In this document: one piece after another, positions 1,576-23,212 of the stretch | How the letters are laid out: each line of letters opens with the position of its first letter | Numbering within the stretch: the stretch's first letter is position 1 | Assembly (NCBI GenBank): GCA_017506865.1 | Contig: JAFCMP010000555.1 | Coordinates: 310,001-374,000 of the forward strand | Reading direction: 5' to 3' | From: Tribonema minus | Lineage: Eukaryota; Sar; Xanthophyceae; Tribonematales; Tribonemataceae | DNA: 64,000 bases | Made by a program: the position numbers and the translations under genes | The notes under the pieces: model-generated | Told to the model about the DNA's origin: nothing | Database searches by the model: none | The model's input: the letters and a program-made list of their open reading frames with translations, nothing else

Positions 1576-1620
1576 TTCACATTTTGGCAGTCGATCACGA
1601 ATAGTACCCCTAACGGGCGC

Positions 1621-3298
1621 CCTGCACAGAGTGGCGCTGTGGGACGCCAGGCTTGAGCATGGCGTGCTACAGGCACTAGTACCTTATTTACATCCACTTG
1701 AGGGGCGAAAACCCTATGAAAAACCAAGTATGCAACCCATGCATACACATGTGCTGTATCAAATGTGCAGCACATGCGCTACTTACACTATCACACAGTC
1801 ACCGACAGTTGTACTCGGCGTGTATCTTTGTGCATGAAGATAACTTTCACGCACACTGAGATGCCATTTGGCGGCAGCGTCGTTTTGGTGGTTGTCATTT
1901 AGAACTTTCAGACTGTCACACGACATGTAGATTCCATGCAGCAAGCTTAGATACCATTCATCTGGGCTTTTCACGCCCTGAGCAAGAATAATTACTTAAG
2001 TAAGTAACAAGTACACTGAATCTCTTGATATATAGAGCGCTGTACGCATATGCGTACCCCTACCCACCCCTACCACAGAGTGACTCTGTGGGACGCCAGG
2101 TGTCCAGAGCGATGATTTGGACTTCCAGGCTACACATGGCATGCTGCATACTGTAGCACAGTGCTATTATCAATTATTTTCAATCACACGGAGTGGAGTG
2201 TACTCGTGAGAGCAGTGTACGCGTAAGCGCGCTCTCTCCACAGATGACGCTGTTGGGCGCCAGGTTTGATTATGGTATGCTACAGACTGTAGTACAGTGC
2301 TACACCTCTGTATCATGAAGTCACTTTGAAGTGAACTGAGCTCATACATATGAGAAGCGGTGTGCATGCGTGCACACCTGTACTTACCCCTACCGCAGAG
2401 TGACGCTGTGGGACGCCAGATTTGAGCACGGTATGCTAAAGACTCTGAACCATACAGCGATTTGCAAGCGCACTGAATCTCCTGATGTGAAAAGCTGTGT
2501 GCACATGTGCGTACCCCTGCCTACCCTGTGCAGAAAGTGATTTGCAAGCACACTGAACCTCTTGATGTGAAAAGCGGAGTGCGCATGTGCGTACCCGTAC
2601 CTGACCCTGTGCAGAGTGACGCTGTGGGACACCAGGGTCTGAGCATGTTATGTTACCATTAGTATACCTTTGTGTAGGTCGCTGCGCATATAAATGACTT
2701 ACAAGTACACTGAATCTCCTGATGTAAGAAGTGCTGTGCTTCCACAAACATCACTCCTGCGTACTCCTGCGCAGAGCAACGCTGTGGGACGCCAGATGTA
2801 CACAGCAATACTGTGGACCTTCAGGCTGCGCATTGCATGCTGCGGACTGTAGCACAGCGCTGTCCTTTTGTACTTGTTATTGAAGTTCTGTACCTGCAAT
2901 TGGCTTACCATACTGAGTCTACACATAACAAAGCAGTGTGCGCATATGTGTACTCCCCCGACAGAGTGACGCTGTGGGACGCCAGGTTTAAGCATGGTGT
3001 GCGACCGACTGTTGTACATTGCTAGACTTCTGTACCATACAGTAGCCTTGACACTGAATTCACTCATATGAGAAGCGGTGCGCATGTGTGCGTACCTCTA
3101 CCTACCCCTGTGCAGAGTGACGCTATGGGACGCCAGGAGCGGCCGCGCGCCCGCGAGCTTCTCCGCGCATGGCATGCTGCAGACTGCAGGCCAGTGCTAT
3201 TATTGTGTACCTGCAGTAAACATTAACCGCACTGAGCATACTCACTGAGTGTACTCATGTAAAGCAGTATGCACATATGCGTACCCCCCCCCCCACAG
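1621..3298 (+). repeat. Tandem decayed copies of the 5' edge of the first visible WD40 exon
   Basis: Copies of the block CAGAGTGACGCTGTGGGACG plus following bases start near 1626, 2079, 2241, 2396, 2612, 2772, 2960 and 3114; the real exon starts at 3299. Spacing is mostly 150-220 bp. Each copy keeps an acceptor-like CAG and the peptide V(T/A)LWDAR, then drifts into a shared 'gagcatggtatgctac' tail. The 3114 copy also keeps the ArgSerGlyArg-coding bases and is the closest to the exon. The inter-copy sequence also repeats ('gaagcggtgtgcgcatgtgcgtacc'-like words). I read it as an intron expanded by tandem duplication of its own 3' junction. Confidence 0.8.
1858..1990. repeat. Dispersed repeat R, copy A
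   Basis: About 133 bp beginning GAGATGCCATTTGGCGGC and ending near CGCCCTGAGCAAGAAT. It matches 38055-38186 in the same orientation, including the shared words CTTTCAGACTGTCA, ACGACATGTAGATT and CATCTGGGCTTTT. It carries no ORF. Here it sits inside the WD40 intron array; copy B interrupts a SET-domain gene, so it behaves like a small non-autonomous mobile sequence. Confidence 0.75.
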
Positions 3299-6200
3299 AG
3301 TGACGCTGTGGGATGCCAGGAGCGGCCGCGCGACCGCGAGCTTCTCCGCGCAGCAGCTGTGCGGGCAGGACAGCGCGGGCGGCGACATCACCGCGCTGCG
3401 CGTCGCGCAGGGCGGGCACAAGGTACTTCAACTTGTAGTTGTTTATTGCGCGCACAGGCACTCCGATATTGTTTGACGCCACAGATTGCGCAGGCTGGGT
3501 ACATGGTTCTACTTCAACTTGTAGATGGCACTGCGCGTTGCGCAAGGCGGGCACAAGGTCTGTTGCGTCATTCATTTTTGCTCGGGGGCGTGAAAGTCAG
3601 ATTGACGCACATGTCATGCTTGCTGTCAGAGTATTCTGATACCCTCGCGGTGACAGAGTGTTTAACAATGGCACAAGGCCATTCTCATCAGTTTTGCGTA
3701 GGGTGCAAAAAAGGGCTTGAGGTACTCCAAGGTGCTTGAGTCACCAGTGCTTGAGTCAAGGGCTTGATTAGGGTCAGGGTCAGAAGTGAGGGTGGATTTG
3801 TAATCTGCACCCTCACCCAAACCCTTGCACTAATTTTGTGCCAATGCGTTGTGCAGGGCGGGCACAATGTACTTCGACTTAAAGTTGCCGTTGCATGCAA
3901 AGCGCATCAACTTGGGATCTGACACTGTACGTCGCGCAGGGCGGGGTAGAGGGTACTTCACATTGCAGATGGCTCCGTGCTTTGCACAGGGCGGGCGCAT
4001 GGCACACATGAACGTACTTGAACTGGCCGGGCTAGGGTTGGGAACAGGTTTATAATTATTGCGTACCACTGCATTACGCACAATGTGCAGATCGATGCGC
4101 ACACTCCAGAAGTGCAACTCGTGACCAGATTGGAGCGTCAAAAATCCTGTCCAGCAACTGTGCGTGCTGGTTCGCCCAAAATTTCAATCTGATTTTATTG
4201 AAGCCAATGACGAAGAAGGCAGCTTCTAGAATTCTGTGAGCACTCAGATGTGCCCTGACTGACATCGTGCAAACGCGGCAGCACACCAAACCTTGTGAAT
4301 TACTAACCCTGACTGCGCCCCCCCCCCCCCCCCCCTTGCCCCCCCCGCTGCCCGCTTCTCTGCGGCAGCTGATCGTGGGTGACGACAGGGGGCGCATCAG
4401 TGTGTGTGACAGCAGCACGGGGGCGCTCATCAAGGTATGTAGATATGAGGTGCAGTGCTCGGCAGGGGATGCGATGTAATCAGTGCTCAGCCCTGTTGAA
4501 ACCCAAAACACCATTCTCTGTCCGAACTGTGAAGATCGGTCATCTGTCTGAAAATTGTGCGCCACATGTGCAGCAGCTGGACCCACATCAAAGACCTGGG
4601 TAAAGCTCTACATAATGCAATTGGCTTTTTCGCAAGGCCTTATTGTAGCAGTTTACGCTGTTTGTGCACAGCCTTGGCAGGGCCCCTGCCAGGGCCCAGA
4701 CACAAAATATACAGTTTGCTCTGCAACAAAACACTCCTTAAGTATGTCACAAATACCAGCCCCAACCCTCATGTAACCGCTGGAAGTTGAATGGGCGAAA
4801 TATTCTGTTTATGGGCATCCTGCATATCTTGTTGGTAGTCTTAGTGTTTTTGTCCTTCATAGATATATTCTTGGTTTTACCCGCACTATCAAGTTTTGCT
4901 GGCCCAACAGCGGCTGGAGCCCCGTGACGTGGCTCGGCGTTGCCTGACCGAAAGCAGCGATTCTTGCCTCACGTATGATTCATGGACTGCAACAGTCACA
5001 TATGCGATAGTTCTCCTCACTCACCACCAGCCCAGACGCTGACCATGTAGAGCACTGCCCCCGACTCCTTAATGCACCCTGCACCACTGCGGCAGCGGCT
5101 GGACCCTCACCATGGGCCTGTGACGTTGCTCCGAGTCGGCGTGCCCGTGCAGCACTTTGCCCCCCCCACCCGGGCTTCGTCACGCACCCTACAATGAGTA
5201 TTAATTTCTAGAACCAATCACATCACAAACATCAGCCCTGACTCAGACAACAATGCTTAAAGTTGCACAGGAGTAATATTCTGTTCATGGGCATTTTGCA
5301 AATCTTCTGGGGTCCTGCTTGGTGCCTTTTACATATGTATATGCTTGTTTTCTAACCGCATTACTGCCCCAACAGCGGCTGGACCCCCACCAGGGACCCG
5401 TGACGTGGCTCGGCGTCGCCTCCACGCGGCTCGACAACTGCGTCTTCTCCGCCGGCGTCGACGGCTACCTGCGCGTGCTCGACGAGGCGGATGCACGAGG
5501 GTTCAAGGTGTGACGATGTGAAGGTTCTTAAAAGTGATGCTTGCGTTTCCCTGTACTTCGCGCGGAGGTAGTGGCCCTCGAGTCAAGCATGCGCGCGCGT
5601 CTGATCAGGGTTGTGCAAAGGGGCTACAGGAGCGTCCAGACTTGATGTTGACGCTAGCTGTAGTATACGTGGAAGTGCACGACGAGGCGGATGCGCGAGG
5701 ATTTAAGGTAGGCTGAATTTTTGTTGCCACCGGTCGTACACCCGTTCAGGCTGCCCGCCCATGGCCCCAATTACGCACGCAGTCAATCCAATTTCTGGTG
5801 CGGTGCTTGGATTTTTTTTCCGGGGTGATGCTCAACACTCTTCACCGCCAAAGCTGCTGGCCTGGCCTGGCGACCTACGCCTTCCACGCACTGAAAGAAC
5901 GAGATTCGAATATCTGATACTTCGAAGTATATGTTTTGACGCGCAGTCTGACCACGACACCTGACCTCCCCTCTACCGCTGATGGAACAACACCATCCCC
6001 TCCTGCATGCAACAGTCAACCTTATTCAGTATCAGTGAGGTACTCAACTGTGACCAGTATACAGAGCACTGCTCCTAAGCAATGGGTTTGGGCTGCAGAT
6101 GCCAACTTTTTGCAGTGACTTGAGAGTCCTGGGTTTGAAAGAGCACCAGCCAGCTATCCCTACGTGCCAAACACCCTCCTTGGCCTGTTGCGATGCATAC

Positions 6201-9200
6201 CCATGCGTACCCCCCCCCCCCCACCCGCCCCACCGCCCATTGCAGCCCGGCAGCGACGCTCAGAACCGTGCGGGCCACAGCGTACTTCTGCGCCAGATAG
6301 GCTTCGCGACGGCGCAACCCGCGCCGCGCGCCGCGGAATGGTCCGCGGAAGATTCCACACTGGACTGTTCCTCGTCGTGGGCGTCGCACACGACGACCGT
6401 CCCGCTGGAGCAGCGGGGGGGGGGCAGCAGAGCGGGGACCGGCAGTAGCCGCCAGGGGGCGCGGTCGAGCAGGGCGGGGGCGCGCGGCGGGGGGGGGTTC
6501 AGCGAGACGTCCCGCAGCCGGCCTCGCAGGTATGTATGCATGTACTGCCATTAATCCCACGCCTTGTACTTTTGTTAGAAGCTGCATGCATGTGTAGGGC
6601 GGGGGCGCGCGGCGGGGGGGGGGGGGCTCAGCGAAACGTCCCGCAGCCGGCCTCGCAGGTATGTATACTTCGAAGTACATGAACCTCAAAATTTCTTCTT
6701 GTTTTTTGAAGCTGCGATGCATGTATTTCAAGTGCATGCATGCGCAGGCCGGGGGGGTGCGCGCGGGGGGGGGGGGGAGGAGACATCCTGCAGTCGGCCC
6801 GGCAGGTATGCACTGATGCCTTGCGGTTCTACGCTGCAAGGGGAACCAGACGCAGAATGGGTCACTCATTGCAAGCCCGCACGGTGGAGTTGTAAAGGCA
6901 GAGAAGGGGGCAGCGAGAGTAGGGGTGCTCACTGAGCCAAGGGTCCAGTGACAGATCAGACCTCCGCATATACATGCCCGTACACCGTCGTCGGGCGCAG
7001 GCGTGCACGTGCGTGTCTCGCAGAAGCATGGCTGGCATGGTGCCTGTGATGCTGACCCAGATCTCAAGATCAGATGCCATGTACAACAAGTCCCTAAATA
7101 ATTCCAACAGCGCCTTAAAGAGTGCTGACCAGAGTCGCCGTTCGCTGCCACTGCTTCTGCTTCTGCACTCAAGATTAGTTGCCATAAACTTCACAAAGTC
7201 CCCATAACATATCAACAGTGCCTTGAAGATTGCTGACCAGAGTCGCGTTTGCCGCCACTGCTTCTGCTTCTGCACTTGAGATTAGATGCAATATACCTCC
7301 CAAGTTTTTCACAACATATCAATGTGCCTTTCAAAAGAAGTATCGACCATGCGTCGTATTCACCGCCGCTGCTGCTGCTTCCGCACTGCGCGGCAGCTGC
7401 GCCCCCGGCGGCAGCCCTGAAGGGGATGGCGCAGCTGCGTCTTAACAGCAGTCGGTTGAAATGTCACGTAACATAAAGTTGTGCATCGAACAAGTTGACC
7501 ACGCGCCGCTTCCTCTGCTTCTGCACTGCGCAGCAGCGGCGCCCCCGGCAGCAGCCTTGATGGGGATGGTATAGCTGCGTCTCAGCACAGCAGTCGGTGG
7601 AATTGCCACGAACATCAAAGATCCCACAACATAAAATTGTGCATCGAAACAAATTGACCACGCGCCGCTTCCTCTGCTTCTGCACTGCGCAGCAGCGGCG
7701 CCCCCGGCGGCAGCCTTGATGGGGACGGCACAGCTGCGTCGCAGCAGCAGTGGGTCGGGGCCGTTGAAATCATGGCAGCAGCCAGCGATGCTCATCTCAA
7801 CCTAATGGCGACGGCCATGCACGCGGAGGACCAGAGCAGGTGGGTATTTGTGGGCTGGCAGCGTCACAGTTGAGGTATATGTGGTACTTCAAGTGGAGGG
7901 GTTATCGTACACCCATGTGCTTGTGACGTTGTTTGCGATCGGGCGTAGTAGTAGTAGTAGGTGCTTCACGTAGCCAGCAATGCTCGTCTCAACCTCATGG
8001 CGACGGCCATGCACGCGGAGGACCAGAGCAGGTGGGTGGGCGTGAGATGGCAGCATCACAATTGAGGTTTATGAAGTTCTTCAAGTAGTGTGCATAGCGT
8101 GTACCCGCGTGCTCGTGACAATGTGCGCTGTCGGGTATGGTTACGTTACGGTTGTAGTGCACGAGGTGCTTCAGGTAGAGTGGTTCGTTCAGGTACACGC
8201 ATGTGCTGGCACAGTGTAATGTGAGCTATTGTCCTGCATCGTCAACGTACGACCACAACGCGACAGGGCCATTGGTCTGATAGCTGTTGGCTGTGCTCAT
8301 TTCTCAGTCTGCCAGCGCCACAAATGCTGCTGGTCATGAGTGCTCGAGCTCCCATGTGCTGCTACTGAGCGGCACTGCTGCCACATGTTGAGGCGTTATG
8401 AAGCGTCCATGCCATGCTGGCAGCAGGCACATGCTGATGGTCGGTGACAAATGGCAACACATTCCCACTGTGCCATTTGCCATCATGCACATGTATTGTA
8501 GAAAGTCAGCGCAGCACCAAATTGCATCGCCGAGCAACAAGTGCCTGCGGCCATCGCGCCCGCTGCGAGACCTCATTCATGGCGCCCCTACTGCGTATCA
8601 CGACGTTGCAAGCAGATAAGCGCTGTTTCCCCTCCGACCTCTGAGCACGCCAAGTACCACAGGCGCGCGCACGGCGCTTACGCCCGCTGCAAGTGACTGT
8701 ACACACATGGCTTGGACATGGTGCCTTCATCGCAGGTCATGACATTGCAGGCAGATGAACGCTGCACCCCACATGCTTGCCTGTCCTTTGCTGCCGAGCA
8801 GTGCTGCGTCATCAGCGACCTACTCCATGGCGGCTGCGGCGGCGGCGGCGGTGCAGGTGCACGTCTGGGACTACGAGATGTGCACCCTGATTGGGGCCTG
8901 CGCGCTGCCGCCGTGCTGCTGCCACAGCGTGAGTCCTGTTTGATGCTTTGAATGTTCCGAATGGCGCACGTTCAGGAGGAGGTGGTCGTTTCGCTTGCCC
9001 AGGATTTTTTGCTGCGCGGCGGCGGGGACGGCACGGACTGCTTTTCGTGCAATTGTGCAGGTGCAAAGGCTCGGGTGTGCTGCTGCGGGGCAAGTGTTGC
9101 AGGCCCGTCATCTGAAGAGGAGGTCTAAGGAGAGCACTTGATGCCATAGCAATTGCGTCGGCAGCCGCAACCGCCTGTAGTCACAGGGGAAGGATGCTCT

Positions 9201-12200
9201 TTGTTGCAGGCATGTGAAAACTTCAAAGTGCACCAGCCAGTATGTGCTGGCACGTGACCCGGTGCTGCATTCCTTAATGAGCTTGTTTTGCGCTCCAAGT
9301 GGTGCTTAGGTGCTTGCGGTAAACTGCCTCGACACATGCGGCCCTGCGCACGAGGCAGCAGCAGCTGCAGCGACCAGCATGTGTACCTGGACTTAGCACG
9401 TTACCCAGACTCGTGCCCACGAGTCCCTCGATGTCACAGGACACGGCGCACGACGCCGCTACATCCGCAACCTCAAGCGCGGCAGTCCCGCCATCGCGCG
9501 ACACCGCGTCGGCAGCGTCGGCAGCACCATCGCCATCAGCATCCGCATCAACATCATCCTCTTCAGCAGCAGCAGCAACGCTCAGCACAGCAGCACGCCT
9601 CAGTACAGCAGCACTGGAACCAGTGCTCAGCGTGTCAACAGCAGCAGCAGTGCTCAACACAGCTGTGGCCGCGCCGCCGCTCGTCACGGCGCTCGCCTTT
9701 GTGCCGCCGCGGCCGCTGCTCGCGGGCGCGACCGCCGCAGGCTTCACGGCGCTGTGGCTCATGCCCGCGTGCACGTGCGTGGCGGTGCTCGCGCCGCCGC
9801 ACAGCGCGCTGCAGCGCGCGCTGCCGCCAGCAGCGGCGGCGGCGGCGGCGGCGCACGCCGTGGAACATCACCACCACCAGCAGCCGCAATGGCGGGCGCT
9901 GACGGCGATAGCGGTGGGCGCGCTGCCGCGGCGCGCCGCCGCCACCGCCGCTGCTGTTACGTTTGTAACTACGGTGGGGTCGCCGCGGGGCGGCGAGGCT
10001 GCTGCGGCGCTTGCAGCGGCGGCAGCGGCGGTGGCGGCAGCGGGCGGGGTGGACGGCGGCAACGACGGTGGCTGCGACGACGGCGGAGGTACTTGCCTTA
10101 TGTTGCAAAACGCATGACACTGGACTGAAAGTCTCATATCCTGGAAGGGCACGACAACCTCGTGTACACACACCTGTTGTTGAGCGAGCTTAAACGAAAA
10201 AAACATACAGGTGTGGCAGCGCTCCTGCTGTCGTGCAGTGTGTGCTGCAACAGACACTGCGAGAAGCAGACGCGTGCGCGGAGCATCACCATCAGAGCCA
10301 CTGAGCGCTGCCAGCAATTGCGGAAGGAGCGCTGCCACGGCGCGCTCTGCTGTCATCCTGATACTGCCGCCATTAGCGCAATGCCGAGGTTGCCTAGCTG
10401 CAACAATGCCACAGTTGGGCGCGCCATGTGGCAGCCGCGGCAGCAGCGGTAGCAGTGGGCGCAATAAAGTGCAAGGTTCTTGCGATTGAATGGATGTTCT
10501 CTGTATACTGCCCTCTGACTGCCCCGACCCTGAATCACCCCCGCCTTGCGATCCTGACCGTGCAGGGCCCAGCAGCGCTCGCGTCACGCGCGCATTCTCC
10601 TACTCCAACGACGTCGGCGACGACGCGCCAGATGGCGGCGGCGGCGGCGGCAACAGCAGCAGCGCAGGGCTGCTGGTGTTCGGGGGGACGGAAGGGGGGC
10701 ATGTGTGGTGCCACGTGCTCGGCGAAGAGACCCTGGCCAGACTGGGCGCGGCGTGCGTCGCTACGCGGCGGCGGCCCAATCACAATCCGTACCGCGCAGT
10801 GCGGGAGTCGGCGCGGTTCGACGCGGTGCAAGCCAGGTATGTATGTGTCTTTGCACGCAAGATGTGTACGTACAATCTATATTGTGTTCCGGATGCCTGC
10901 ATGCTCTGCTGTGGGCAACCAATGTGAAGCTTTTTTCATACCGTCCCCGTCCGACGCAGGACATCTGTATGCTCATTAGCGGCGATTTATCGCAGATGCA
11001 ATGTTCATGTGAGGCGCGAGTTAACTTACAAACATGTGCATCGGCAATGCTGGTGGCAGTCTCTCATTGTGCGATGAGAGAGGCTCAAAACAACATTGAG
11101 ACAAGTTGGGGAAGATCAGATCGATTTACTAATGGCAATCTCAGTAAATTGCCGAAGTGTGCGATTTGCAAAATGAGCTGGGCAGCGGCCCATGTATGCG
11201 TGCGGGGTGCCGTCTTTTTGCAAGTACCCCGCCTTCTTGCAACTGACTCACCAAATCCGGCGCGCTGCCAAGGTCGGGCGCACAGTTCATTGAGGGCCAG
11301 CACTTGCCTGACCTCAACTTGAATTCAAACAATCGACCTTATTGCTTGAACTTAAACCCTCGTGGAACCCCAACCGGACGTCAGCTTTGACTGCCTCCGC
11401 ACGCGCAGCCACCGCGCCGCTGTGCGCCGGCAGGCTGCCGTGACCGCCGGCGATTGTGCTGGCCTGACCTTAACTTCAACTTGACCAGAACTCCTATACG
11501 GCCAGACTTGAACTTTGAAGTTGACTCGAAGAGCTACGTAATCATCAACTTGCTGATATTTGCGTGCGTTCGCAGCAACCGCGCCGCGGTGCGCCGGCAG
11601 GCGGCTGCGACGCCGCCGGCTATCGTGCCGGCCTGGCGCGCCTGGAGCGCGCACGGCGATGCGGTGACGTCCCTGTCGTGGCTAGCGGGCGGCGGCGCGG
11701 TGGTGTCCGCAGGGAGGGACGGGCTGGCGCGCGTGTGGAGCGTCGACGGCCAAAGGTGAAGTTTGCCTCTGCCGTTCTTTCCTCCCTCATGCGCGGGAAC
11801 GGCAAGAAGTGGACCGAGAAATGTGCAATGAGAATCTGTCACTATCAGGGGCCATCTGGCACCTGCAGCACAGCTCGGCACGCTGTCACAGCGTGCAGGC
11901 GTCAGTGGAGCCAGTACCAGGCATTATGCATGCATTGAGCAATGCAGCTTTTGTAATTGTTTAATATGACTTGTTCATATGGCGCCACATAATAATGGTG
12001 GTATGCCGTGCTGAGGGGCACTCAATTGAGAGTTCGTAGCAACACTATTTGGCTCGTGGCAACAGTGGCGGCAGCGCTCACACCTGGCCCTGCTGCTTGA
12101 GGGTATATGTGTACAACCTGTGCTGGACGCGAGCCGCCCATACTCGCACACACCAAGAATTCTGCCAGGTCACACGCTGATTCACCTTCTGGCTCATGGG

Positions 12201-15200
12201 CAATCACACTCTCTGCACAGCACCTCCTCCTCAAAGTACTTCCTTCACAGCACTAATTGCTGCAGCCCGCTTATACTGCGCGGGCTGCACACTTCATGGT
12301 TTGCATGCTCATCAGCCACCTTACTATTGCTCAACAGGTGCCTGGGCGTACTAGACGTCGACGGCACCCTGTCCGGCGACCCCGACTGGGCAGTTGCGCC
12401 CCCCTCTGGGGGGGACGGTGGGGGCGGCAGTGCTCGCGCCGCCGCACGCCGCCATGGCAGGGGCAGCGTTGTCAGCGTCAGCAGCGCTGCTGCGGCGGCA
12501 AAAGACGACACCGACGAAGCGCCGCGCAAGTCCGTGGTCGAGAGAGCGGCGCGCAGCCGGTGCGTTCAGCCCTTAGGCTAGCTGCAAATCCGCGTCCAAT
12601 TCATGACAGGGCTCGAGAGAAGAACAATCACTGCAAAGCATGTAAGCCCTCCCCACCCGGCGGTGAGCGCCTGCATGGAACCCAGACACGAGAGGTCTAG
12701 GGTCACCAATGTGGTTGCGCGCAGCCTCTGTGCCTAGCCGTGATTGACGTTGACATCGGCCTGCCTCTCTTCGCACGCCATGCCCAAACCTTGCTTGACT
12801 GTGACATCGGCCTGCCTCTCGTCGCACGCCGCGCAAGAAGCTGTCCCCTGCACCTCCTTCCCGGCAGCAAGAGTCCGTTCGAGAGCGCCATGGGGAGTAT
12901 GAGCGCTGCTGCGTCGCGAACAGGGGCGAGGCTTTGTGGTCATTTGAGGGGACGAGAATGAACTGTAGGTGGGATTGAACAAGGAAGAGGGGTTGTCATC
13001 CATGATGCAACAGAGGCAAGCACTGCAGTGTTGCCACCCTCACGGACGGCGCAATCCCAGATGCTATGGGACGGTCTCTCAGGCGCTTCTCAGCGAACCT
13101 CAATGCCGCACAGATTGCTGTGATGGACCCGTCCAGCGCTTGTGTGTATCAGCATGAGCAGCTACACGCGCTGCCCAGCAAGCCTTATTGTAGTTCAATT
13201 ACACAAATGCTACATCTCTGGTGCCCACGCACCCATGCCACACCTTCACCCTGCCTCAAGCCACGTCGTACACAACAATCACATTATTTCAACTGCAGCA
13301 GCATATGTGCTTTTTATGTATCTGTGTATACTGCGATGACATCTGTGCCCTGTACCTGTGCAACCCTTTGGTTGTACCCTGTTTAACTTTCATCTGCCTG
13401 CCATGCAGGCGGTGCACTTCCAACCTGAGCATTGCCTTTGCTGGCGTGCAATTTTCGCAGCCCTAACCCTGATTGAATTCCATCTGCCTGCCTTCAGCAC
13501 GCTGTCCAACCTGAGCGCTGCCTTTGCTCGCGCACGATTGGTGCGGTCCTAACTCTAATTATATTCTACCTGCCTGACCTGCCCTACAGTACGCGCTGCC
13601 TTTGGTGGCGCACGGATGGTGCAGTATTAACCGCAATTGGGGTCTACATACCTACCTGCTTGCAGCACGCTTCTAACCTGAGCGCTGCCTTTGCTGCCGC
13701 GCGATTGGTGCGAATGTAGCCCTTGAAATGATTTCCACCTGCCTGCCCTGCTCTGCAGTACACCGTCCACCCTGAGCGCTGCCTTTGCTGGCGCGTGATT
13801 CATGCAAACGTAACCCTCATTTAACTCTATTTACCTGCGCTGCCCCTGCAGCACGCTGTCCACCCTGAGCGCTGCCTTTGGAGGCGCGCGGATGGCGCGT
13901 CACCTCAGCCAGCTGCGGCCGAAGTGCGGCGCCGGCGCCAGCAAAGCTACCCTCGCAGACGGCGTCAGCGCTGCTACGGGAGGCGCAGAGGCGAGTCACC
14001 AGCAATCAACAAAGCAATCAGCATAATGCACAGCACGTGCATGTGTGCTGTGTAGGCCATGGTATTACGCCAGCCCCCAGTGTTTGCTGGTGGGCGGGAG
14101 GCAGGGGACGAGCAAGCTGCACCCGCATATGCGCGGAGCAGGTGCTGCAGGCATAGCAATTTTGAACCGAGATGTGAGTACGCTCGTGGCTAGGGTATGA
14201 CATCATGCGCAGCGCAGGTTGTCATGTCTTGGAAGGCATGCCACCATCTAACTGGTTCTGGTTTCACGTACCTGACCTTTGGTGCTCCCTGGCACTTTAT
14301 TTCACTCCTTCAGTGCGAAGTGGGGAACGTTTGTTTTTTACATCATGACACATATTGCACAATTGAACTCGATAGCTCCTCTCAGATTTTTAAAAAAAGC
14401 TTCAGATCCTGAAGACTCCAGTGTCTCTAACCTTGCGCGATGCTTCAATCCTCTTTGCAACGGTTGTACAACACTCATGCAACATAATTACAGCTTAAGT
14501 ACTGCTTCAACTTTTCTGAAGTCAGAACGGTATAAATGTCAGATTTCCGTGTTTCTGAGAAATTCATATGTGCGCGGATGCTCATCATGGGCATCTTGAG
14601 AGTTAGACTCATTCAGTGCGAATTTGTAATTTCTGTTTCATTGGTGTCGCCTCAGGTGACCGCGCCTCAGCCGCAGTGGGAGGACATGACGCGCAACATT
14701 GACAGCTTCCGTGACAGCATGGAAGATCGCGCAAAGGTAACCTCCGCAGCGGAACAAGCGCGTACACAGCGCGCGTAGACTCTTCAAGTAGTTGTAGTTG
14801 AGGCATGAATAGCAGAAGTAGCGCAGGCATTAGGTGCATTTGAAGGAGCACTTGCAGTTCAAGTGCACTTGCAGGAGCACTTGCAGTTGACGTTGACATG
14901 CCACAGCTTCCGCGACAGCATGGAAGATCGCGCGCCAAGGTAATTAGAAGCGGAACAAGTGCGTACACAGCGCGTGCAGACACTTCAAGTGGTTGCAGTT
15001 GAGGCATCAATAGCAGAACTAGAGCAGGCTTAAATGCGAAGGAGCACTTGCAGTTTGAGTGCACTTGAAGGAGCACCTGCAGTTGAGGTTGACATGCCAC
15101 AGTAGTGGTTGCAACAAAACAGCCTTGCACACCAGATATAATGCATCAGCATATTGGTGTTTGCGGCCTGCCGGAGGCATACAAAAACAGTCATGCACAT

Positions 15201-18200
15201 ATCATGCTTGCACGTGGGCGAAAGAATTTACAAAAGCAGCAGCCCAGTGCTAGTGCTTCCTATAGACTCAGGCCAACCATCATACCTTTTCAACCCCTTG
15301 TCCCAGCTGTAATATCTCAACTCCAGCGCCGTCGATGCACACCAATAATTTATGAAGATTGCTACATGTAAGCATGCAAGTAATTTATGCTGATTGATAT
15401 TGTGTACATGCACCTGTCTGCTTGTATGCCTGCAGAGCCGAGCAGCGGCGGTGTCTCCGGCCAAGATGGTCAGGGTAAGTGTGCAGGCTGAGTGCTGTCA
15501 CTTGATGGCACTATCGCGATCCCTTGCATTGCGGAGCTTTGCAGCATGTAGATCGCAATGTGGTAGACTTCTGGCAATTTTGGATCCATGTGGGGAGCAG
15601 GCGTAATACCTGGCGTATGCATTAGGTTGTGCTTTTCTTAAAGTTCCAGAGGGTCCTCGGGCAACAGGCAGCGTAGTGCCATCGCTTGAGGTTGTTGATT
15701 GGCACAGGTCAGCAACAGTAGGCACGCTGCAGCTGCAGCAGAGCCCCAGCTGCCAGGCACCACTCTCATTTGAGGTGGCGCGTGTTCCGTATTTTGGGAT
15801 ATCATACCGCCAGCTGATACCATGCATTCTCTAGGGCATTCATGATGTTGTTGGCTGCGAGTGCATGCACACATCAATCATCGCTGCATGGCTGCACCAC
15901 AGCTGCAGGAACATGGTGCTGTGGCTGCTTGGGCTGAAGTGTGTATGTATACGAAGTATGCTGCGAGCCTGAGCACCGGGACCTGCTCACCGCACCCTTC
16001 ATCCCCCAGTCGTTACTCAATGTGTAACCATGTTGATAATCGGCACGATGTTCAGCAGCAGTGCTCCGCCTGCACGCCTAAGCGAGGCACAAGATTCAAA
16101 AGCTGCACCACGCTACACAGAGCACGTGGCATAGCGTGTAGTGTCATGTCTGCTGAGCGCTGCTGCACTCCATCTTATGGCCGCTCCATGCCCAAACTCA
16201 ACCATGCCAGCCCCCCTGTTAAAAAAAAAAACAAAAAAAAACAGCAGATTCCAGCTCCCAAGTTTGCAGACAACAGCCCTCAAATAATGTTTGCTGACCG
16301 CGCCGCCTGCAGAGCCGCGCTCCCGCTCAGGGCAAGCGCTGGCGCAGCAAAGCGCACTGGGAACGATCCGCGGGCCCTTCCTCAGACCATTCTCTGGAGC
16401 GCGCACAGCTGAAGCATGCGCACAGCAAGTCGGCGACTGCTCTGTCGGCGCTGGCGGCGCGTCGACACCTGTTCTGGCGGCCACCGGTGAGCATACCTAC
16501 ATACTGTGATGTGAAGTATATAACTTCAACTCCTCAGGCAGATGAATAGCTGCATGCACACAGCAGCTGTCCCGCAGCATTTGAAACACCTGTGCAGACA
16601 TGCAAGAACAGTCGTCTTGTGAAAGTCGGGTTCACCCCTCAAGTCAGTTCGATGCTACAGCTGCTGCCGCAATGTAACTTTGGGACTTGGATGCTTGAGC
16701 TGCTTGCAGAGCCCCTGCCGCCAGCTACACTGCAACGAAGGTCATTAGATCGGCTTTGTCCAGCTAGTGCAGGCGTGATGGCATGCATGCATGACTTCAA
16801 GGATCTGACGAACAGGCTGGAGCTGAAGTTGATTGCCTGTGGCAAAGTAGCCGCTGACTCACCTTGTGACACTCTCTCAGTAGCTCAAGTTGACAAGTGC
16901 TCACATTGAGGGTTGCATCCTAATCGATCATCGGGCACATGGAGCCAACGTTGTACTGCTGTGAAAACATACTTCAAGTATCACATACACCACGGCGTGG
17001 TAATTCAATCACTGTTAACTGTTGTACTCTGCATCATTTCGGATGCTACATGCGCCCGCCCATGACTCAGCTCCTGCATCCAAAGAATCATTTACCAGCC
17101 GCTGCCACCCCTGTAATCAAGTGCCCACTGCGGCACTGGCAGAGCGCGCATATTCGCACCACTTCGAGCAGTCCAGCCATAAGCCCCTCTGCAGACACTG
17201 CACACACTGACAGGGCTCGACACTTTCGTGTGCACCTCGAAGTATACCTGTTCACTGACACCAGTTGATGCGTCATCCCACAAGCCATACGCTTTCATAA
17301 TAAATTTCTAGGTGCGGGCGACGACCGAGCAGCTCCTGCGCCCGAAAGACGCGCCGCCGTCGCCGCCGACCGCTGCCGGCCGCCCTCTGCAAGAGTGGCG
17401 TAGCGTGTGTTCACCCTCGCACGGGGACAGTGCGGAGGCGGACGAAGGCGGAGGACCCGTGGGGGAGATCTGGGAGAGCAGCGGGGGGGGGCGCGGTCCC
17501 TTCGAGGGCAACCCAGGTACTGCGAAGTGTCGCGCAAGCTAGCTTAGAAGCGCGTGCATCAATTTCACCGCGTCACTCTTGGGCAGATGTGATTGGCCAG
17601 AGATGGGGGAGGGGAGGGCATGAGGGGCAGGGTAGCGGTTCAAAAATTAGCATCAAGTGGCAGTAAGTATACTGTAGAAGCACAGTCATGGGAAACTCTG
17701 ACGCTGACGTGCCTGGTGCTGACTTGCTTGACCGGAGCCGTAAAGTGAAGTTGTGACACCGTTGCTGTCGCACAGGGCGGTGCTGACACTGAGCGCGCGA
17801 CAACGCTTGCCGACACTGTGGCCGCAGCATGATGAGTTGATTCCGTGAACTTGTTTGTGGATGGTACTTCTATAGAGTGCGCCTAGCAGGACGGCCAGAG
17901 AGCTCCATATTTTGCAGGAGGGTGTTTCAGCCACTTGAATATTATGATTAGCCCTTGCAACCCAAAAGCAGCCTGTGGGGGTTAGCATTCAAAGGTGCCA
18001 TCACGTACACTGCAGACTTGCGCAGCGACTTGCCCCAACGGTCACTGAAAGCATGCCAATTTCTCCTGGCGTTATGCACTGAGTGCACCGCCGCTGCTCC
18101 TGCCAGTTATACATACATGCCGCGCGTGCGACTCACACCTCACTACCTCACCCCCCACCAAACCCTTTGCCAGCCCCACGCAGAGGCAGGGTACCCCTCA

Positions 18201-19498
18201 AGTCAGCAGTTACATCTCCCAAGAAGGCTGTACTGGCGGTTTCAAGGGGCGGTCGCCTGGCTGCTGGCGACGTTGTTGTGGAGGCTGGGCCTGATGGAAA
18301 GTACGATCTCAGCGGCTTGAAGGGGCGTGCGCAAGCGGATGAGGAGCAGGTTAATTGTCTGGTTTGGGAACTTATTGTAATACATTGCTTTGTCTACTGC
18401 CACTTCAACTAAGGCTTCAAATCGAAGAAGCCATTATAATTACTTCCTCAGTTTTGACCCTTTGTCTTCATATACAGAATACAGCATGCTGTATGCAGTG
18501 TACAGCAACACAGCTATCATGCAACTGTGCTCAGTGCGCTCCCAGTCATACAAGTGTACATCATGACCCTGAACTGGTCAAAGCATGCAGACCAACGGAG
18601 GGGCAAGCATAAGTACAGTACTGGCAACACGACGCGAGCGTGCCAGCAACACGAGACAATGCCATCTTACAACACTCATGATACATGACAATAGGGCTGA
18701 GTCCAGAGGTATGCAACTCTTGTCATGCGGCAGAACAGTGCTGAGGGCAGGTATATCCTTTTTCATTGCAAAGATCAACAGCAGCAAAGTCTCCTGTGGG
18801 TAGTCTGCTGACACAGTTGCTGTGTAAGCTGAGCACCGTGAGAATGCGCAGGCGTGATCCACAGTGCTGGGGCTAGTCTAGGCCTGATGGCACAGATTGG
18901 CCGGAACAATAGACTGGTACGATGCTAATGGTGTGCAATTATTCCAACAAGTTGTTGAGATGTGAAATCAGGCTGCTGAACTATATCGTAATTGAGTACT
19001 GCAGTATTGGTGTATTGGGCGAAGATGTGCTGTCAAAATGACCATCACTCCGCACCCACAAAGCACTGACGTACATCTTGATGCTCCACATGGCATGTTT
19101 AGAAAAACATGGCCAGTCCCTTGCATGCATGAAACTAGCCGCGAATTGCCCATCACAAGAAAACAGAGGAAGGCAAGTGGTACCTCAATCATCGCAGCGT
19201 TTTTTGCCTGGAGCAAGATCTACAATATGTTCATCTTGGCATCTTTTATGCTCGGGACTTTACTCCTGCAATACCTGCTAGACCTTCACAGATTCAAAAG
19301 TGTGCGGCCTCGCATTTGCTGCCAGCAGCACATGCTCTGACACCAACATGCTACTTTGGTGATGTTTCCCTTCCTTTGTAAATGTCGCAGCCGTCGCCCA
19401 AGCGCGCAGGCAGGAGCAGGCACCTCGGCGGCACGGACATCACCGGTACGGGCCAGATTGCCACCATCCGCAGGCTCATACACATGGGCATGCTGTAG
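3299..19498 (+). CDS. WD40-repeat protein, C-terminal 1029 residues, 17 exons
   Basis: Exons: 3299-3422, 4369-4434, 5376-5507, 6246-6529, 7693-7839, 8802-8928, 9440-10088, 10566-10836, 11576-11755, 12338-12559, 13852-13990, 14656-14736, 15436-15474, 16313-16486, 17312-17516, 18207-18349, 19391-19498 (TAG). All junction phases agree and the chain stays open for 1029 residues. The exons carry WD40 blades: LWDARSG, DGYLRVLDEA, VHVWDYEMC, VTALAFVPPRPLLAG then ALW, GHVWCHV, and GRDGLARVWSVDG. After about 12560 comes a charged, probably disordered C-terminal third ending IRRLIHMGML. A Ser/Ala-rich stretch opens exon 7. Intron 11 uses GC-AG. The 5' end is missing: the first visible exon starts in mid-codon and only echo repeats lie upstream. 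The blade order recalls flagellar WD40 proteins of the WDR49/CFAP337 type, but that is a guess. Confidence 0.85.
3475..3990 (+). repeat. Copies of the 3' edge and donor of WD40 exon 1
   Basis: The exon ends GCGCAGGGCGGGCACAAG followed by GTACTTCAACTTG. Decayed repeats of this junction occur near 3534-3560 (GCGCAAGGCGGGCACAAG then gt), 3850-3872, 3932-3958 and 3972-3995, several followed again by TACTTC-type words. They lie within intron 1 and mirror the upstream array of 5'-edge copies. Confidence 0.7.
4318..4368 (+). promoter_or_regulatory. C-rich polypyrimidine tract and acceptor of WD40 exon 2
   Basis: A run of 17 or more C, a second C run and then CTGCCCGCTTCTCTGCGGCAG lead into exon 2 at 4369. 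The C run serves as the polypyrimidine tract. A similar C run precedes exon 1 (about 3287-3294). Confidence 0.55.
4569..5130 (+). repeat. Copies of the 5' edge of WD40 exon 3
   Basis: The exon begins CAG then CGGCTGGACCCCCACCAGGG. Decayed copies start near 4571 (cagctggacccacatcaaag), 4911 (CGGCTGGAGCCCCGTGACGTGG, which keeps the TGGCTCGGCGT word) and 5095 (CGGCTGGACCCTCACCATGG). The true exon is at 5376. Each copy keeps the acceptor. Flanking intron text such as 'tgggcat...tcttg...tggt' also repeats. Confidence 0.7.
5664..5712 (+). repeat. Copy of the 3' edge and donor of WD40 exon 3
   Basis: GACGAGGCGGATGCGCGAGG then ATTTAAG followed by GTAGGC repeats the exon end at 5480-5507 (GACGAGGCGGATGCACGAGG then GTTCAAG, GTGTGA). 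The donor is retained. The copy lies 190 bp downstream, inside the next intron. Confidence 0.75.
5901..5934. repeat. Palindrome-containing dispersed word ATACTTCGAAGTAT
   Basis: A perfect 14-bp palindrome at 5917-5930 follows a CGAATATCTGA stretch. A closely similar arrangement is at 48331-48354 (CGAATCTGAA then the same 14-mer). Shorter versions are at 6666-6677 and 47456-47466. All four lie in introns. Confidence 0.65.
6590..6810 (+). repeat. Two copies of the 3' edge and donor of WD40 exon 4
   Basis: The exon end (6470-6529: GGCGGGGGCGCGCGG, a G run, CAGCGAGACGTCCCGCAGCC, then CAG and GTATGT) recurs at 6598-6659 and, more decayed, at 6746-6808. Both copies keep CGGCC.CGCAG or CGGCAG followed by GTATG. 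The interval is about 130-150 bp. Confidence 0.8.
7135..7692 (+). repeat. Copies of the 5' edge of WD40 exon 5
   Basis: Units built on CTGCTTCTGCACTGCGCAGC then AGCGGCGCCCCCGGCGGCAG lie at about 7353-7450 and 7505-7610; the real exon starts at 7693. Shorter forms of the CTGCTTCTGCTTCTGCAC part lie at 7145-7175 and 7255-7280. Each unit is preceded by a '...accacgcgccgcttc' or 'gaccagagtcg' word. Period is about 150-180 bp. Confidence 0.75.
7968..8034 (+). repeat. Copy of the 3' edge and donor of WD40 exon 5
   Basis: The final 60 bp of the exon (GCGATGCTCATCTCAACCTA through GACCAGAGCAG and GTGGGT) is repeated at 7977-8028 with only a few changes and a retained GTGGGT donor. The copy is about 190 bp downstream. 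Splicing to it instead of the first donor would change the protein. Confidence 0.8.
11394..11455 (+). repeat. Copy of the 5' edge of WD40 exon 9
   Basis: CGCAGCCACCGCGCCGCTGT followed by GCGCCGGCAGGC repeats the exon start at 11571 (CGCAGCAACCGCGCCGCGGT). The acceptor is kept. It lies 170 bp upstream of the real exon, with similar 'cttgaact' text before each. Confidence 0.75.
13400..13851 (+). repeat. Five tandem copies of the 5' edge of WD40 exon 11, about 90-bp period
   Basis: Acceptor-plus-exon starts lie near 13409, 13497, 13589, 13666 and 13757; the true exon starts at 13852. Each unit reads CTGCCTGCC..GCAG, then a form of CACGCTGTCCACCCTGAGCG, CTGCCTTTGCTGGCGCGCGA and TGGTGC, then a short 'aaccctaattgaattc'-like linker. 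Spacing is 77-95 bp. Copies nearest the exon are most similar in the CTGAGCGCTGCCTTTG core. This is the most regular array of the gene. Confidence 0.85.
14775..15110 (+). repeat. Tandem duplication around the 3' edge of WD40 exon 12
   Basis: The exon end (CAGCTTCCGTGACAGCATGG, AAGATCGCGC, AAAG, gtaa) recurs at 14905-14942 with a retained donor. The flanking intron block also repeats as a unit at about 14765-14905 and 14955-15100, containing GAGGCAT.AATAGCAGAA and several GGAGCACTTGCAGTT words. Confidence 0.75.
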
Positions 19499-19912
19499 GC
19501 GCGAGCAGCTGAAACAGGCCGCTGAGACGTGCTGCACTTCGCACCACAGCACGCATGCGCTTGGTGCTGAGCACTGTGCTCGCTGTCTTACATGCCGAGG
19601 ACGCGCACAAGGCACCGTCTAGCATGTCACGTAGGTAGAGTCGTCGTATGGGCAAGTCAGGTTGACAGTGTGTACTCGTCACCGGCACGAGCCAGATCGC
19701 CACCATCCGCAGGCTCATACACATGGGCATGCTGTAGGCGCGAGCGAAGCTTCAACATGCTGCTGAGACGTGCTGCACTTCGCACCACAGCACGCGTGCG
19801 CGTAGTGCTGAGCGCCGTGCACGCGGTCACACATGCCCAGGACGTGCACAACTTGAAGGCACTGTCTAGCGTGTCACGTAGGTAGAGTCGTATGGGAAAG
19901 TCAGGTGGACAG
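19441..19912 (+). repeat. Tandem duplication of the WD40 gene's terminal coding end and 3' UTR (about 235 bp)
   Basis: The block from the ATCACCGG codons through the stop and on to CATGTCACGTAGGTAGAGTC (19435-19645) is repeated at 19675-19890. The second copy again contains CGCAGGCTCATACACATGGG and CATGCTGTAG, so it also encodes the last residues and a stop. It could serve as an alternative 3' end or be an inert echo. Confidence 0.8.
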
Positions 19913-20302: not shown

Positions 20303-23066
20303 AAAGTTGAAGTTGTATATTATGTCCTGGACCGCATGGGTTCAGCGCATGACAAATCGGGCAATAACTAAATCTACGGAGGGGCCGGCGGTTCGGCGCT
20401 GGCCGGCGAGGGCCGCGGCACTTGCAACAGTGCGATGCGGCGGTAAGCGCTGACGTCGCCATCAGGGGCAATGACTGCGTTCCAGTTGTCGATCACGACA
20501 CGTGTGAGCGCGCGCTGTAGCGCGAGGGAGGTGCGGCGGCGCCAGAAGGCAACGCGCTGCGCGAGATTGTAGCTGCCCTGCGAGCTCTGCTCGGTGAGTG
20601 CGTGTAGCAGCGCTTGGGTGTCGCGTGACATAGCGCCGAAGTGGTCAAAGGCTGCGGAAAATAGGGTGTGTGTAGTGGGGTCCAGGGCCCCTGAGACTAC
20701 GTTATGTGTCTATCTTTTCCTGCGAAGCCGATTCAAGCACGCGCTGCACATCGCGCGCGCCCCCCTGAGCCTGACGGAGGCAGGAGGGACATGAGCTGTC
20801 ACGTATGGTGACGTCTATGCAACAAGCTACTTCAAAGCCGCCGCGCAGTTTAGTGCACCGGCCTGCCGCTACCGCGTCGGCGCTCGGCTGCACTTTAGGG
20901 ACTGGAAGGCAGATCTGGTTGCTGCCGAAGACGATGTCCATGAACTTGTTGAACCCGTGGCGCGCCGCATAGCGGCGGAAGGGGGCAAGGGTGTCCCGGT
21001 CGAGACCGCGGAGGTGGGCCACCTGCTTGAGCAGCTGAAAGAGCGCGTCTGCAAGCAAGTTGTGTCGCGTGACGTTAAGCCCTTGTGTGCAGCGGCGCAG
21101 GTGCGCGCCGGAGTCCACTGGTTTCTGGCACTTGGGGCACCGCGCCGCAGCGGGGGCGGGGCGCTCCACGCCCAGGTGGCGCCGCAGCGTCTCGCGGAAT
21201 TCTGGCGGCGACATGGTCTCTGCTGGGTCAGTGCTCGGCAACTGCGCCAAGAAACCCATGGCCCCCTTAGAGGCGCCGCTGCGCCACGCCGCGACTGCTT
21301 CCAACTCATTTGCTGCTTCAAGCCGGCGCAGCTGTGTGGCGGCGAGCGCTGCGTCTAGCACCCGTGATAGCGCGGCTTGACGCCGCGGCAGCACGGCGGC
21401 CGGCGGGGCCTGGGCAGAGCCTGGCTCGCGCGCCGCCGCTGGCGCAGCGCGGCGCGCGCCGGCGCGAGTCCGCATGCCCAGCCCCGCAGCTCCGCCTGCC
21501 CGTTGCAGCAGATCGCGCAGTGCCCGCCATGCGCCGTCGTCCTGGCGCCAGTCCTGGTACCAGACCGAGGGCACTGCAGGAGCAGTGCGAGGGCCGCCGC
21601 GGCATCATCGCTGCCGCTGCGCAGCTGCTGCAGGCAGGTAGCTATCTGAGTGAAGGTGAAGCCGTAGCGGGCGTGGTCCAGGACGCGGCTGCGCGCCGCC
21701 ACTGGAAACGCCGCCAGTGCCGGTCCCATGCACTCGAGGGTACGTGCAGCAAATGCGGCACATGCACGCGGCGCCGCGCCCAGCACGCCAAAGCCACCGC
21801 TCCCCAGCCGCAGATGCACGCGTACCTGCTGATGTGCTAGTAGCGTCACCGGGGCCTCGCCATCCCAGTCGGCGCCGCGTACCCATGCCACTGCCGCCGC
21901 CCAGTGGCACAGAGAGGGCGGTGCCGCCGCCGCCGCAACCGCCGGCGGGCCGCGGCAATCGTCACCAGCCGCCGGCGCGCCCTCGTGGGCCGGCGGCGTA
22001 AGGCCCGCCGATGGCTCCTGCGCCAGCGCAGCCACGGCCGCTAGCGTGATGGCGTCGAAGCGCCGTAGCTCCTCGTGTGTGAGGGATGGCGCCGTGTTGC
22101 GCGCGACATGCCCTGCGCGGGCGGGGACAGCAAGACGCAGAATCGAGAAGGCAGCCTGCACATCCTCCATCTGCACCAGCTCCGCCACCAGGCGGTCGGT
22201 GCCGAGGGCACGAAGGGTCGCCGCTACGTGTGCGCGCACGAAGTCCTCGGTGCCAACCGGCACCCCCATCAGCGTGATGCCGTCGTCACATACTGGTACG
22301 GGGACATTGGCGGCAGCGAAGACGGCGGCGGCGCGCTCGCGAGCGCCGCCTGAGGCCGGCACCAGCGCCGCGCATTTCGTGACGTTGACCTGAATGTTTA
22401 GCTCGCTCAGCGCCTGTTGTATGAAGCAGCACGCGCGGCCAACGTGGCCGAGCACTGGCGCGTCACAGCTGGGCGTCATGATGGTGAGGTCATCGAGGTA
22501 GCTTGGAAGCGCCAGCTGCGGGAACTTGGCGCGGGCAGCCACCATGGTGCCGCGCAGTGCCAGCGCGAACAGCAGCGGCCCCAATGGGTCGCCCTGCTGC
22601 ACGCCCTGTTGGGAGAGGATGATCGCGGCGTCGGCGTGCCCATCTAGGCCAAATTGTAGCCAAGGGGCCCGCCCGGGGCCGTAGATGTGCTCGACGTAGC
22701 CGTACAGGCCAGGCAGATGCTCGGCCACCGCAGTGAGGACTGCCGATCGCGACAGCGCGTTGAAGGCATTACTGCCGTCAATGGCAAGGAGCACGCCGCC
22801 GCACTCATGCGTGAGCTGCGCCATGAGCGCCACCCTCTCCGCGCCCCCCCGCGCGCCGACCCCAAACTGGCCAATGGGTTCTAGCAGCGCGGAGACGCAG
22901 TCTCGGGTGTCCGTGCAGAAGGTGCGGGCGAACAGGCGGCGGATGGTGTCGCCGCACGCGATGGGGCGCGCCTTCTCGCCCACAGCGCTGAGGCGCGCGG
23001 CTGCGTGGAGGCGCCAAAAGGGGGCGGGCAGCGCGGCTGGGGTAGAGTACGCCGTGGTACCCAGCC
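20303..23066 (-). mobile_element. Non-LTR retrotransposon copy 1, 5'-truncated
   Basis: It matches copy 2 (28031 to about 31235) end to end. The 3' end, after the ORF2 stop, is a short UTR containing the complement of TATATTATGTCCTGGACCGC and running into AACTTCAACTT. The 5' end is truncated where the match stops at GGTACCCAGCC (23065). GTTGAAGTTGAAG-type hexamer repeats flank both ends (20303-20315 and 23067-23080). This could be a target-site duplication or a shared target microsatellite. 5' truncation is typical of target-primed reverse transcription. Confidence 0.88.
20374..23063 (-). pseudogene. Retrotransposon ORF2 (reverse transcriptase), frameshifted
   Basis: Read on the minus strand, the frame from about 23063 shows RT motif A (LLAIDGSNAFNAL), motif B (QQGVQQGDPLGPLL) and motif C (SYLDDLTIM). 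Relative to copy 2 a 5-bp insertion near 21571 shifts the frame. The protein then continues through a CPKC-x8-H-x3-C zinc knuckle and a GFEVACCIDVTIRD segment that could be the active site of a restriction-like endonuclease. A second, 1-bp insertion near 20703 (gactacgTTA against gactacgTA) shifts it again before the C-terminus ending PASAEPPAPP. The N-terminal zinc finger and ORF1 are absent. Not functional as it stands. Confidence 0.85.
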
Positions 23067-23212
23067 GTTGAAGTTGAAGTTTCCTCGGACCCAGAGTGGC
23101 CTACAGAGCTGGCGCCTAGAGACCTGGCAGCTAGAGAGAACCGGCCAGCTGTTGCTGTCGGAACGCTATCTAGAGCACCGCTGGTGGCACGTTCACACCA
23201 ACCCTGGTGTAG
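23067..23212 (+). promoter_or_regulatory. Upstream region of SET/MYND copy 1
   Basis: 146 bp separate the truncated 5' end of retrotransposon copy 1 from the ATG of the SET gene. It starts with GTTGAAGTTGAAGTTTCC and has repeated CTAGAGA/CTAGAGC words. No TATA box stands out. It must hold the promoter if the gene is transcribed. Confidence 0.3.

What the first reader, a model, noticed from the sequence alone, without database searches (positions are those of the whole stretch)
1621..19912. Introns of the WD40 gene are built from echoes of their neighbouring exon edges
Seen directly: at least eight of the 17 exons have decayed tandem copies of one or both edges in the adjacent intron. 5'-edge copies, with an acceptor, lie upstream of exons 1, 3, 5, 9 and 11. 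3'-edge copies, with a donor, lie downstream of exons 1, 3, 4, 5 and 12, and the last exon is followed by a copy of its own end. Copies decay with distance from the exon. I know of no standard element that does this. It could be a mutational process of replication slippage across junctions, or a retained pool of alternative splice sites.
Basis: partly seen in the sequence, partly recalled or inferred. Interest (0 to 1): 0.88.

Follow-up and report, generated by a model that had tools for sequence, protein, structure and literature searches.

The report
Duplicated exon edges inside algal introns
In the yellow-green alga Tribonema minus, introns of several genes hold extra, partly worn tandem copies of the neighbouring exon's edge with its splice site, more often than even, neutral duplication would give in the genes sampled, so introns there may partly grow from their edges.

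Summary
The window is from Tribonema minus (Xanthophyceae). Edge queries against other genes' introns gave 0 of 1,140. Three array units tested match only their own locus. Other genes show the layout: 61 of 380 edges in the first sample against 164 of 3,398 intron-internal positions. Neutral simulations of uniform tandem duplication give an edge/internal ratio of 0.8-1.4; the real ratio, all loci pooled, is 3.1 (bootstrap 1.9-4.8). Against: 0 of 36 edges in held-out loci and 2 of 32 in random stretches, so the effect varies by gene and its genome-wide frequency is unknown. Copies do not in general decay with distance. Best reading: repeated tandem duplication across splice junctions, offsets mostly 90-270 bases. 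Why junctions are favoured is open; codon-position signs of partial constraint are mixed with signs of decay.

The parts
3300..3422 (+). Exon E1 (first exon of my model), source of acceptor and donor echoes; upstream exons may exist
1604..3169 (+). Array of decayed copies of the E1 acceptor edge; 40-base cores at 1631, 2080, 2400, 2966, 3117. The published start codon (MTLLGAR, 2244-2264) and first exon piece (from 3117) lie in copies of this array
3518..3557 (+). E1 donor echo
3829..3868 (+). E1 donor echo (weaker similarity continues to about 4002)
5376..5507 (+). Exon E3
4911..4950 (+). E3 acceptor echo, far copy
5096..5135 (+). E3 acceptor echo, near copy
5668..5707 (+). E3 donor echo
6246..6529 (+). 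Exon E4
6619..6658 (+). E4 donor echo (second, weaker copy at 6744-6810)
7693..7839 (+). Exon E5
7394..7433 (+). E5 acceptor echo, far copy
7534..7573 (+). E5 acceptor echo, near copy
7978..8031 (+). E5 donor echo; 54 bases read as an exon (SNARLNLMATAMHAEDQS) in the published model
11576..11755 (+). Exon E9
11409..11448 (+). E9 acceptor echo
13852..13990 (+). Exon E11 (donor uncertain)
13376..13850 (+). Array of about five ~90-base units copying the E11 acceptor edge; cores at 13498, 13666, 13759
14656..14736 (+). Exon E12
14900..14939 (+). E12 donor echo (unit of about 200 bases, 14903-15102)
19391..19498 (+). Last exon E17 with stop codon
19679..19912 (+). Tandem copy of the end of E17 plus downstream sequence
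4369..4434 (+). Exon E2, no echo
8802..8928 (+). Exon E6, no echo
9440..10088 (+). Exon E7, no echo (acceptor uncertain)
10566..10836 (+). Exon E8, no echo
12338..12559 (+). Exon E10, no echo
15436..15474 (+). Exon E13, no echo
16313..16486 (+). Exon E14, no echo
17312..17516 (+). Exon E15, no echo (acceptor uncertain)
18210..18349 (+). Exon E16, no echo (acceptor uncertain)

Best explanation
Units that span a splice junction, with offsets of mostly 90-270 bases (middle half 126-192), are duplicated in tandem again and again. The exon-proximal copy stays in use as exon and splice site; the other copy, with its splice site, falls inside the intron, lengthens it and decays. Shown: the copies are local, same-strand, hold exon edge plus splice site and in most cases intron flank, and are over-represented at splice junctions in the pooled loci sampled. 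Inferred: that the exon-proximal copy is the one in use, and that the excess reflects a duplication process biased to junctions or selective keeping of junction copies. I lean slightly to biased duplication, with a minority of copies spliced as mini-exons for part of their life.
For: All ten named edges recovered. The three units tested are local only. First sample: 61 of 380 edges with echo against 164 of 3,398 internal positions; pooled with the held-out set, 61 of 416 against 170 of 3,646, ratio 3.1, bootstrap 1.9-4.8. Exons backed by Pfam WD40 seeds or by hand: 25 of 99 edges against 99 of 1,272 internal positions of the same introns. Duplication coverage falls from 28% in the last 25 exon bases to 12% beyond 300 bases into the intron; two simulations give the opposite slope, 7 to 15% and 10 to 20%. 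The 40 bases of intron flank are at least 60% identical in 66 of 94 echoes, against 8 of 300 random pairs. Offsets at edges are like those of intron-internal duplications (median 159 and 170, p 0.97), which fits one duplication process. Start- and stop-codon edges: 2 of 54.
Against: Held-out loci 0 of 36 edges; the four random stretches 2 of 32. The simulation assumes uniform rate, steady state and simple indels, with parameters of my choice; the real identity spectrum in deep introns is older than the simulated one. Among matches of 90% identity or more, intergenic coverage (5.3%) comes near that of exon ends (7.3%), though there it is mostly long repeats of 319-1,067 bases. Some predicted exons are echoes themselves (WDR33-like gene), which distorts the whole-sample count. 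The gene-end control is small (p 0.013 without, 0.031 with the held-out set), its ends are less surely placed, and the one stop-codon case is the window gene.
Confidence: 0.6

Rival explanations
1. Uniform neutral tandem duplication plus detection bias: the exon copy is frozen by selection, so junction copies stay recognisable longer.
For: Expected to some degree; exon cores are better kept than intron flanks, and the splice dinucleotide is kept at about the simulated rate. Held-out and random loci are at background.
Against: Simulations with this bias built in give an edge/internal ratio of 0.8-1.4 against 3.1-3.3 and coverage that is lower at edges than deep in introns.
Confidence: 0.2
2. 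Selective retention: echoes are kept because they are spliced, as mini-exons or alternative sites.
For: Mismatch to the exon by codon position 4.5, 6.1, 15.4%; ratio third/first-two 2.91 (bootstrap 2.35-3.43) against at most 2.05 in simulation; flank/first-two 3.44 (flank alignable in 60 of 94) against at most 2.12. Core intact (no frameshift or stop, splice dinucleotide kept) in 59 of 94. Offsets divisible by three at 29 of 61 edges, noticed after the fact (p 0.015). The published model uses echo copies as exons.
Against: 23 of 94 echo cores have frameshifts, 5 have stops, 12 lost the dinucleotide. Echoes drift from G/C to A/T (190 against 112, p 8e-6), as unused DNA would. Read-through between edge and echo is open in 10 of 61, below the control's 20%. 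Mutation-context effects (such as CpG) on third positions were not controlled.
Confidence: 0.25
3. Gene conversion from the exon keeps refreshing the echo cores.
For: Cores stay similar regardless of rank in the array while flanks diverge.
Against: With an otherwise unused echo, conversion allows a third/first-two ratio of about 2 at most (inference); observed lower bound 2.35.
Confidence: 0.1
4. Dispersed intron-making elements (introners) or other mobile DNA.
For: None found.
Against: Three array units match only their own locus in the 158 Mb genome; the copied part is each exon's own edge.
Confidence: 0.02

Closest known systems
Intron gain by a tandem duplication crossing an intron-exon boundary (potato RdRp gene, PMC4974935; abstract and results section read)
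   Same: Direct tandem duplication that carries the end of an intron and the start of the next exon with its splice signals; the published Tribonema model of this gene likewise reads echo copies as exons.
   Different: One event in one gene, giving a new intron confirmed by RNA reads. Here many junctions, both donor and acceptor sides, repeated into arrays, and many copies look unused. RNA was not available to me.
Rogers-type intron gain from a duplicated exonic AGGT segment (described in PMC4974935 and, in passages seen, PMC2891723)
   Same: Tandem duplication touching splice-like sequence.
   Different: There the duplicated segment is exonic and supplies both new splice sites. Here the unit straddles an existing junction and the copy lies inside an existing intron.
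Introner elements (PMC9860276; search listing only)
   Same: Mass supply of intron sequence with splice sites.
   Different: Introners are one family copied to many genes; the copies tested here are each gene's own edge and stay local.
Intronic minisatellites (recalled)
   Same: Tandem arrays of roughly 90-200-base units.
   Different: These arrays are anchored on exon edges and include coding sequence.

Membership tests
Tandem duplication across an intron-exon boundary (potato RdRp type) | Same-strand local repeat carrying exon edge, splice site and intron flank | tested here: met
Tandem duplication across an intron-exon boundary (potato RdRp type) | New intron or exon spliced in mRNA | not testable with these tools
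   No RNA data; the published gene model uses echo copies as exons, its support unknown to me
Tandem duplication across an intron-exon boundary (potato RdRp type) | Recent gain shown by relatives lacking it | tested here: inconclusive
   No related genome held. Solved WDR33 has one stretch where the predicted algal protein has two copies; the DAW1 comparison is ambiguous because the repeats of that protein resemble each other
Rogers AGGT exonic duplication | Duplicated segment wholly exonic | tested here: not met
   Intron flank identity, median 0.65 against 0.23 for random pairs
Introner elements | Same element in many introns of many genes | tested here: not met
   three units, matches only at the own locus
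Tandem duplication of whole exons | Copy spans the whole exon | tested here: not met
   Exon part of the echo has median 52 bases; 6 of 77 echoes of exons of 85 or more bases reach 85

The most novel reading that the evidence does not exclude
In Tribonema minus a junction-directed duplication process, perhaps coupled to transcription or splicing, lengthens introns from their edges and keeps offering new mini-exons, some of which are translated for a time before they decay.
Probability: 0.25. Interest if true: 0.8.

Novelty: new variant of a known kind. Interest (0 to 1): 0.52.

Why it matters
How introns lengthen and how new exons arise are mostly known from single cases. A genome with many junction-anchored copies of different ages would let one follow the steps: birth, use or non-use, decay. 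It also matters in practice: gene models, the published one and mine, read echoes as exons, so predicted proteins of this alga can contain false repeated peptides.

Tried and rejected
The first gene finder drifted and, after a change of settings, merged genes and lost the window gene; it was replaced by a two-strand one. I kept its first-round model because later rounds lost seed exons (50 to 45 of 52). Dispersed element: rejected for the units tested. Structured RNA: no Rfam match in the window at gathering score. Whole-exon duplication: rejected as the general case. Use of echoes by read-through: not supported. The mini-exon test (70 of 94 echoes allow one) had no control and is not used. 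Codon-position differences unique to one echo were dropped, because serial copying from a changing exon can mimic them. A planned control for mutation context (CpG) was not run. The search for proteins related to the alga's WDR33-like protein (E up to 1e-80, 99 listed) showed none named as the alga's own, which may fall outside the length limit. Of the five structure searches only those of the WDR33-, PLRG1- and DAW1-like proteins printed an orthologue alignment; for the CIAO1- and PRPF4-like ones I saw hit names and another protein's alignment. Held-out loci were meant as replication and came out negative; one of their six kinase seeds was missed by the gene finder.
Full report
Where it is. 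One search places the window at C552:310001-374000 of a 158 Mb genome in 554 contigs. The protein of the gene is P0001, hypothetical protein JKP88DRAFT_283951 of Tribonema minus, 90% identical over the query; the differences are stretches of different exon choice. P0001's contig length, 573,618, equals that of C552. Tribonema minus is a xanthophycean stramenopile.

The gene. I rebuilt 17 exons in frame, E1 3300-3422 to E17 19391-19498, 1,028 residues. Pfam finds WD40-type matches at residues 2-103 and 622-665, mostly below the curated cut-offs. P0001 differs at the E11 donor, the E15 and E16 acceptors and in E7. It also takes three pieces from echo copies: its start MTLLGAR (2244-2264), VTLWDARSGRAPASFSA (from 3117) and SNARLNLMATAMHAEDQS (7978-8031).

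The observation. A strict search (last 40 exon and first 20 intron bases against the rest of the same intron, score 44 or more) returns acceptor echoes at E1, E3, E5, E9, E11, donor echoes at E1, E3, E4, E5, E12, and none at the other 23 of 33 edges. The stop-codon edge of E17 has one too. Edge queries of all first-sample genes, run against introns of other genes, gave 0 of 1,140. One unit each from the E1, E5 and E11 arrays matched only its own locus in the whole genome; that search skips simple repeats and very common words.

Other genes. For the first analysis I held 240 kb of further sequence: 19 stretches on or next to WD40 hits plus the stretch next to the window, and 4 of 120 stretches drawn at random. 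With the window this makes 18 blocks, 304 kb. A two-strand gene finder put 50 of 52 WD40 seeds in the right frame and 13 of 17 hand-made exons exactly, giving 39 genes and 271 exons. Local duplications cover 28% of the last 25 exon bases and 24% of the first 25 intron bases, but 12% of introns beyond 300 bases and 8% of exon interiors; intergenic coverage is about 10%. Straddled edges: 126 of 464, and 99 of 360 outside the window's block. The strict search finds echoes at 61 of 380 edges, against 164 of 3,398 intron-internal positions. On exons backed by a Pfam seed or by hand it is 25 of 99 edges against 99 of 1,272 positions in the same introns (p 5e-7, not corrected for clustering). Eleven of the 18 blocks hold at least one echo; one block has no predicted gene.

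Results against. A held-out set, three kinase-gene stretches and the WD40 locus L002, gave 0 of 36 edges (p 0.005 against the first set). Within the first set the four random stretches gave 2 of 32. Echoes are rarer in the shortest introns: 2 of 71 edges under 200 bases, 21 of 81 over 1,000, with no smooth trend between. Pooled over both sets the edge/internal ratio is 3.1, bootstrap 1.9-4.8 by block and strand. So the effect is strong in some genes and absent in others, the sample leans to WD40 genes, and the genome-wide frequency is unknown. Some predicted exons are themselves echoes: in the WDR33-like gene two predicted segments align to the same residues of solved WDR33. For the DAW1-like gene the comparison is ambiguous. 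The five genes sent to the structure search were picked because they carried echoes.

Is it just detection? An echo can be recognised longer because its exon is frozen. I simulated uniform tandem duplication with frozen exons, indels and balancing deletions. The edge/internal ratio was 0.8-1.4 over six settings (real 3.3 in the first set), and coverage was lower at edges than deep in introns, the reverse of the data. For matches of 90% identity or more, real coverage is 7.3% in the last 25 exon bases and 0.5% deep in introns; simulated 1.8-3.0% and 4.3-6.0%. In that class intergenic DNA has 5.3%, mostly long repeats of 319-1,067 bases. The simulation assumes steady state; real deep-intron duplications are mostly older, so the fit is not exact. 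Start- and stop-codon edges show 2 of 54, the stop-codon one being the window gene, fewer than splice edges (p 0.013, or 0.031 with the held-out set). That points to splice junctions and not coding edges in general, but those ends are less surely placed.

What the copies look like. Nearest echoes lie 93 to 274 bases away (5th to 95th percentile, median 159), like intron-internal duplications (median 170, p 0.97). The exon part has median 52 bases. Exon-core identity has median 0.90 over 30 bases and the intron flank 0.65 over 40, where random pairs give 0.23, so the flank is homologous in most echoes but more worn. Core identity does not depend on rank in the array.

Are the copies used? For: third codon positions differ 15.4%, first and second 4.5 and 6.1%, ratio 2.91 (bootstrap 2.35-3.43) against at most 2.05 for an unused copy in simulation; flank divergence is 3.44 times the first-two-position rate (flank alignable in 60 of 94) against at most 2.12; core indels are 0.5% and flank indels 3.4% per base (simulated 0.6-1.0% and 1.6-2.1%). 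Cores are intact in 59 of 94. Offsets are multiples of three at 29 of 61 edges (p 0.015) and 13 of 25 confident ones (p 0.04), a pattern I noticed after the fact. Against: frameshifts in 23 of 94 cores, stops in 5, splice dinucleotide lost in 12; G/C to A/T drift 190 against 112 (sites not independent); read-through open in 10 of 61, below the control's 20%. Mutation context was not controlled. I read this as mostly unused copies with a minority spliced for a time. RNA would settle it.

Compared with what is known. The nearest case is the potato RdRp gene, where a tandem duplication across an intron-exon boundary made a new intron (PMC4974935, abstract and results section read). PMC2891723 (passages) describes exonic duplications that carry a proto-splice site. 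Here units straddle junctions on both sides, recur into arrays, and appear in several genes of one genome. My searches for a report of such a pattern showed none among the titles and abstract openings listed; the lists were capped, and only open-access papers are held.

Verdict. The finding is real and better than chance, its proposed decay rule fails in general, and its cause is open. I rate it a new variant of a known kind, interest 0.52.

Noticed in passing
window 503-961: Inverted repeat (arms 566-708/749-891, 87%; 503-560/904-961, 93%) just upstream of the gene.
   Followed up: partly
window 35051-36349 and 38317-39643: Two diverged copies (76%) of a gene that looks SET/MYND-like; similar frames near 23-25 kb and 60-62 kb. 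The family name is my reading of the translations, not tested.
   Followed up: no
window 21355-23100 and 30102-32237, minus strand: Long frames that look like reverse transcriptases of a non-LTR element; my reading of the translation, not tested.
   Followed up: no
window 46661-47761: Tandem array with a unit of about 200 bases, not examined against gene structure.
   Followed up: no
published protein P0001; window 2244-2264, from 3117, 7978-8031: The public gene model starts in one echo copy and takes two further pieces from echoes, so echoes can enter annotation.
   Followed up: yes
first-sample echo offsets: Excess of echo offsets divisible by three, without open read-through; unexplained.
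   Followed up: partly
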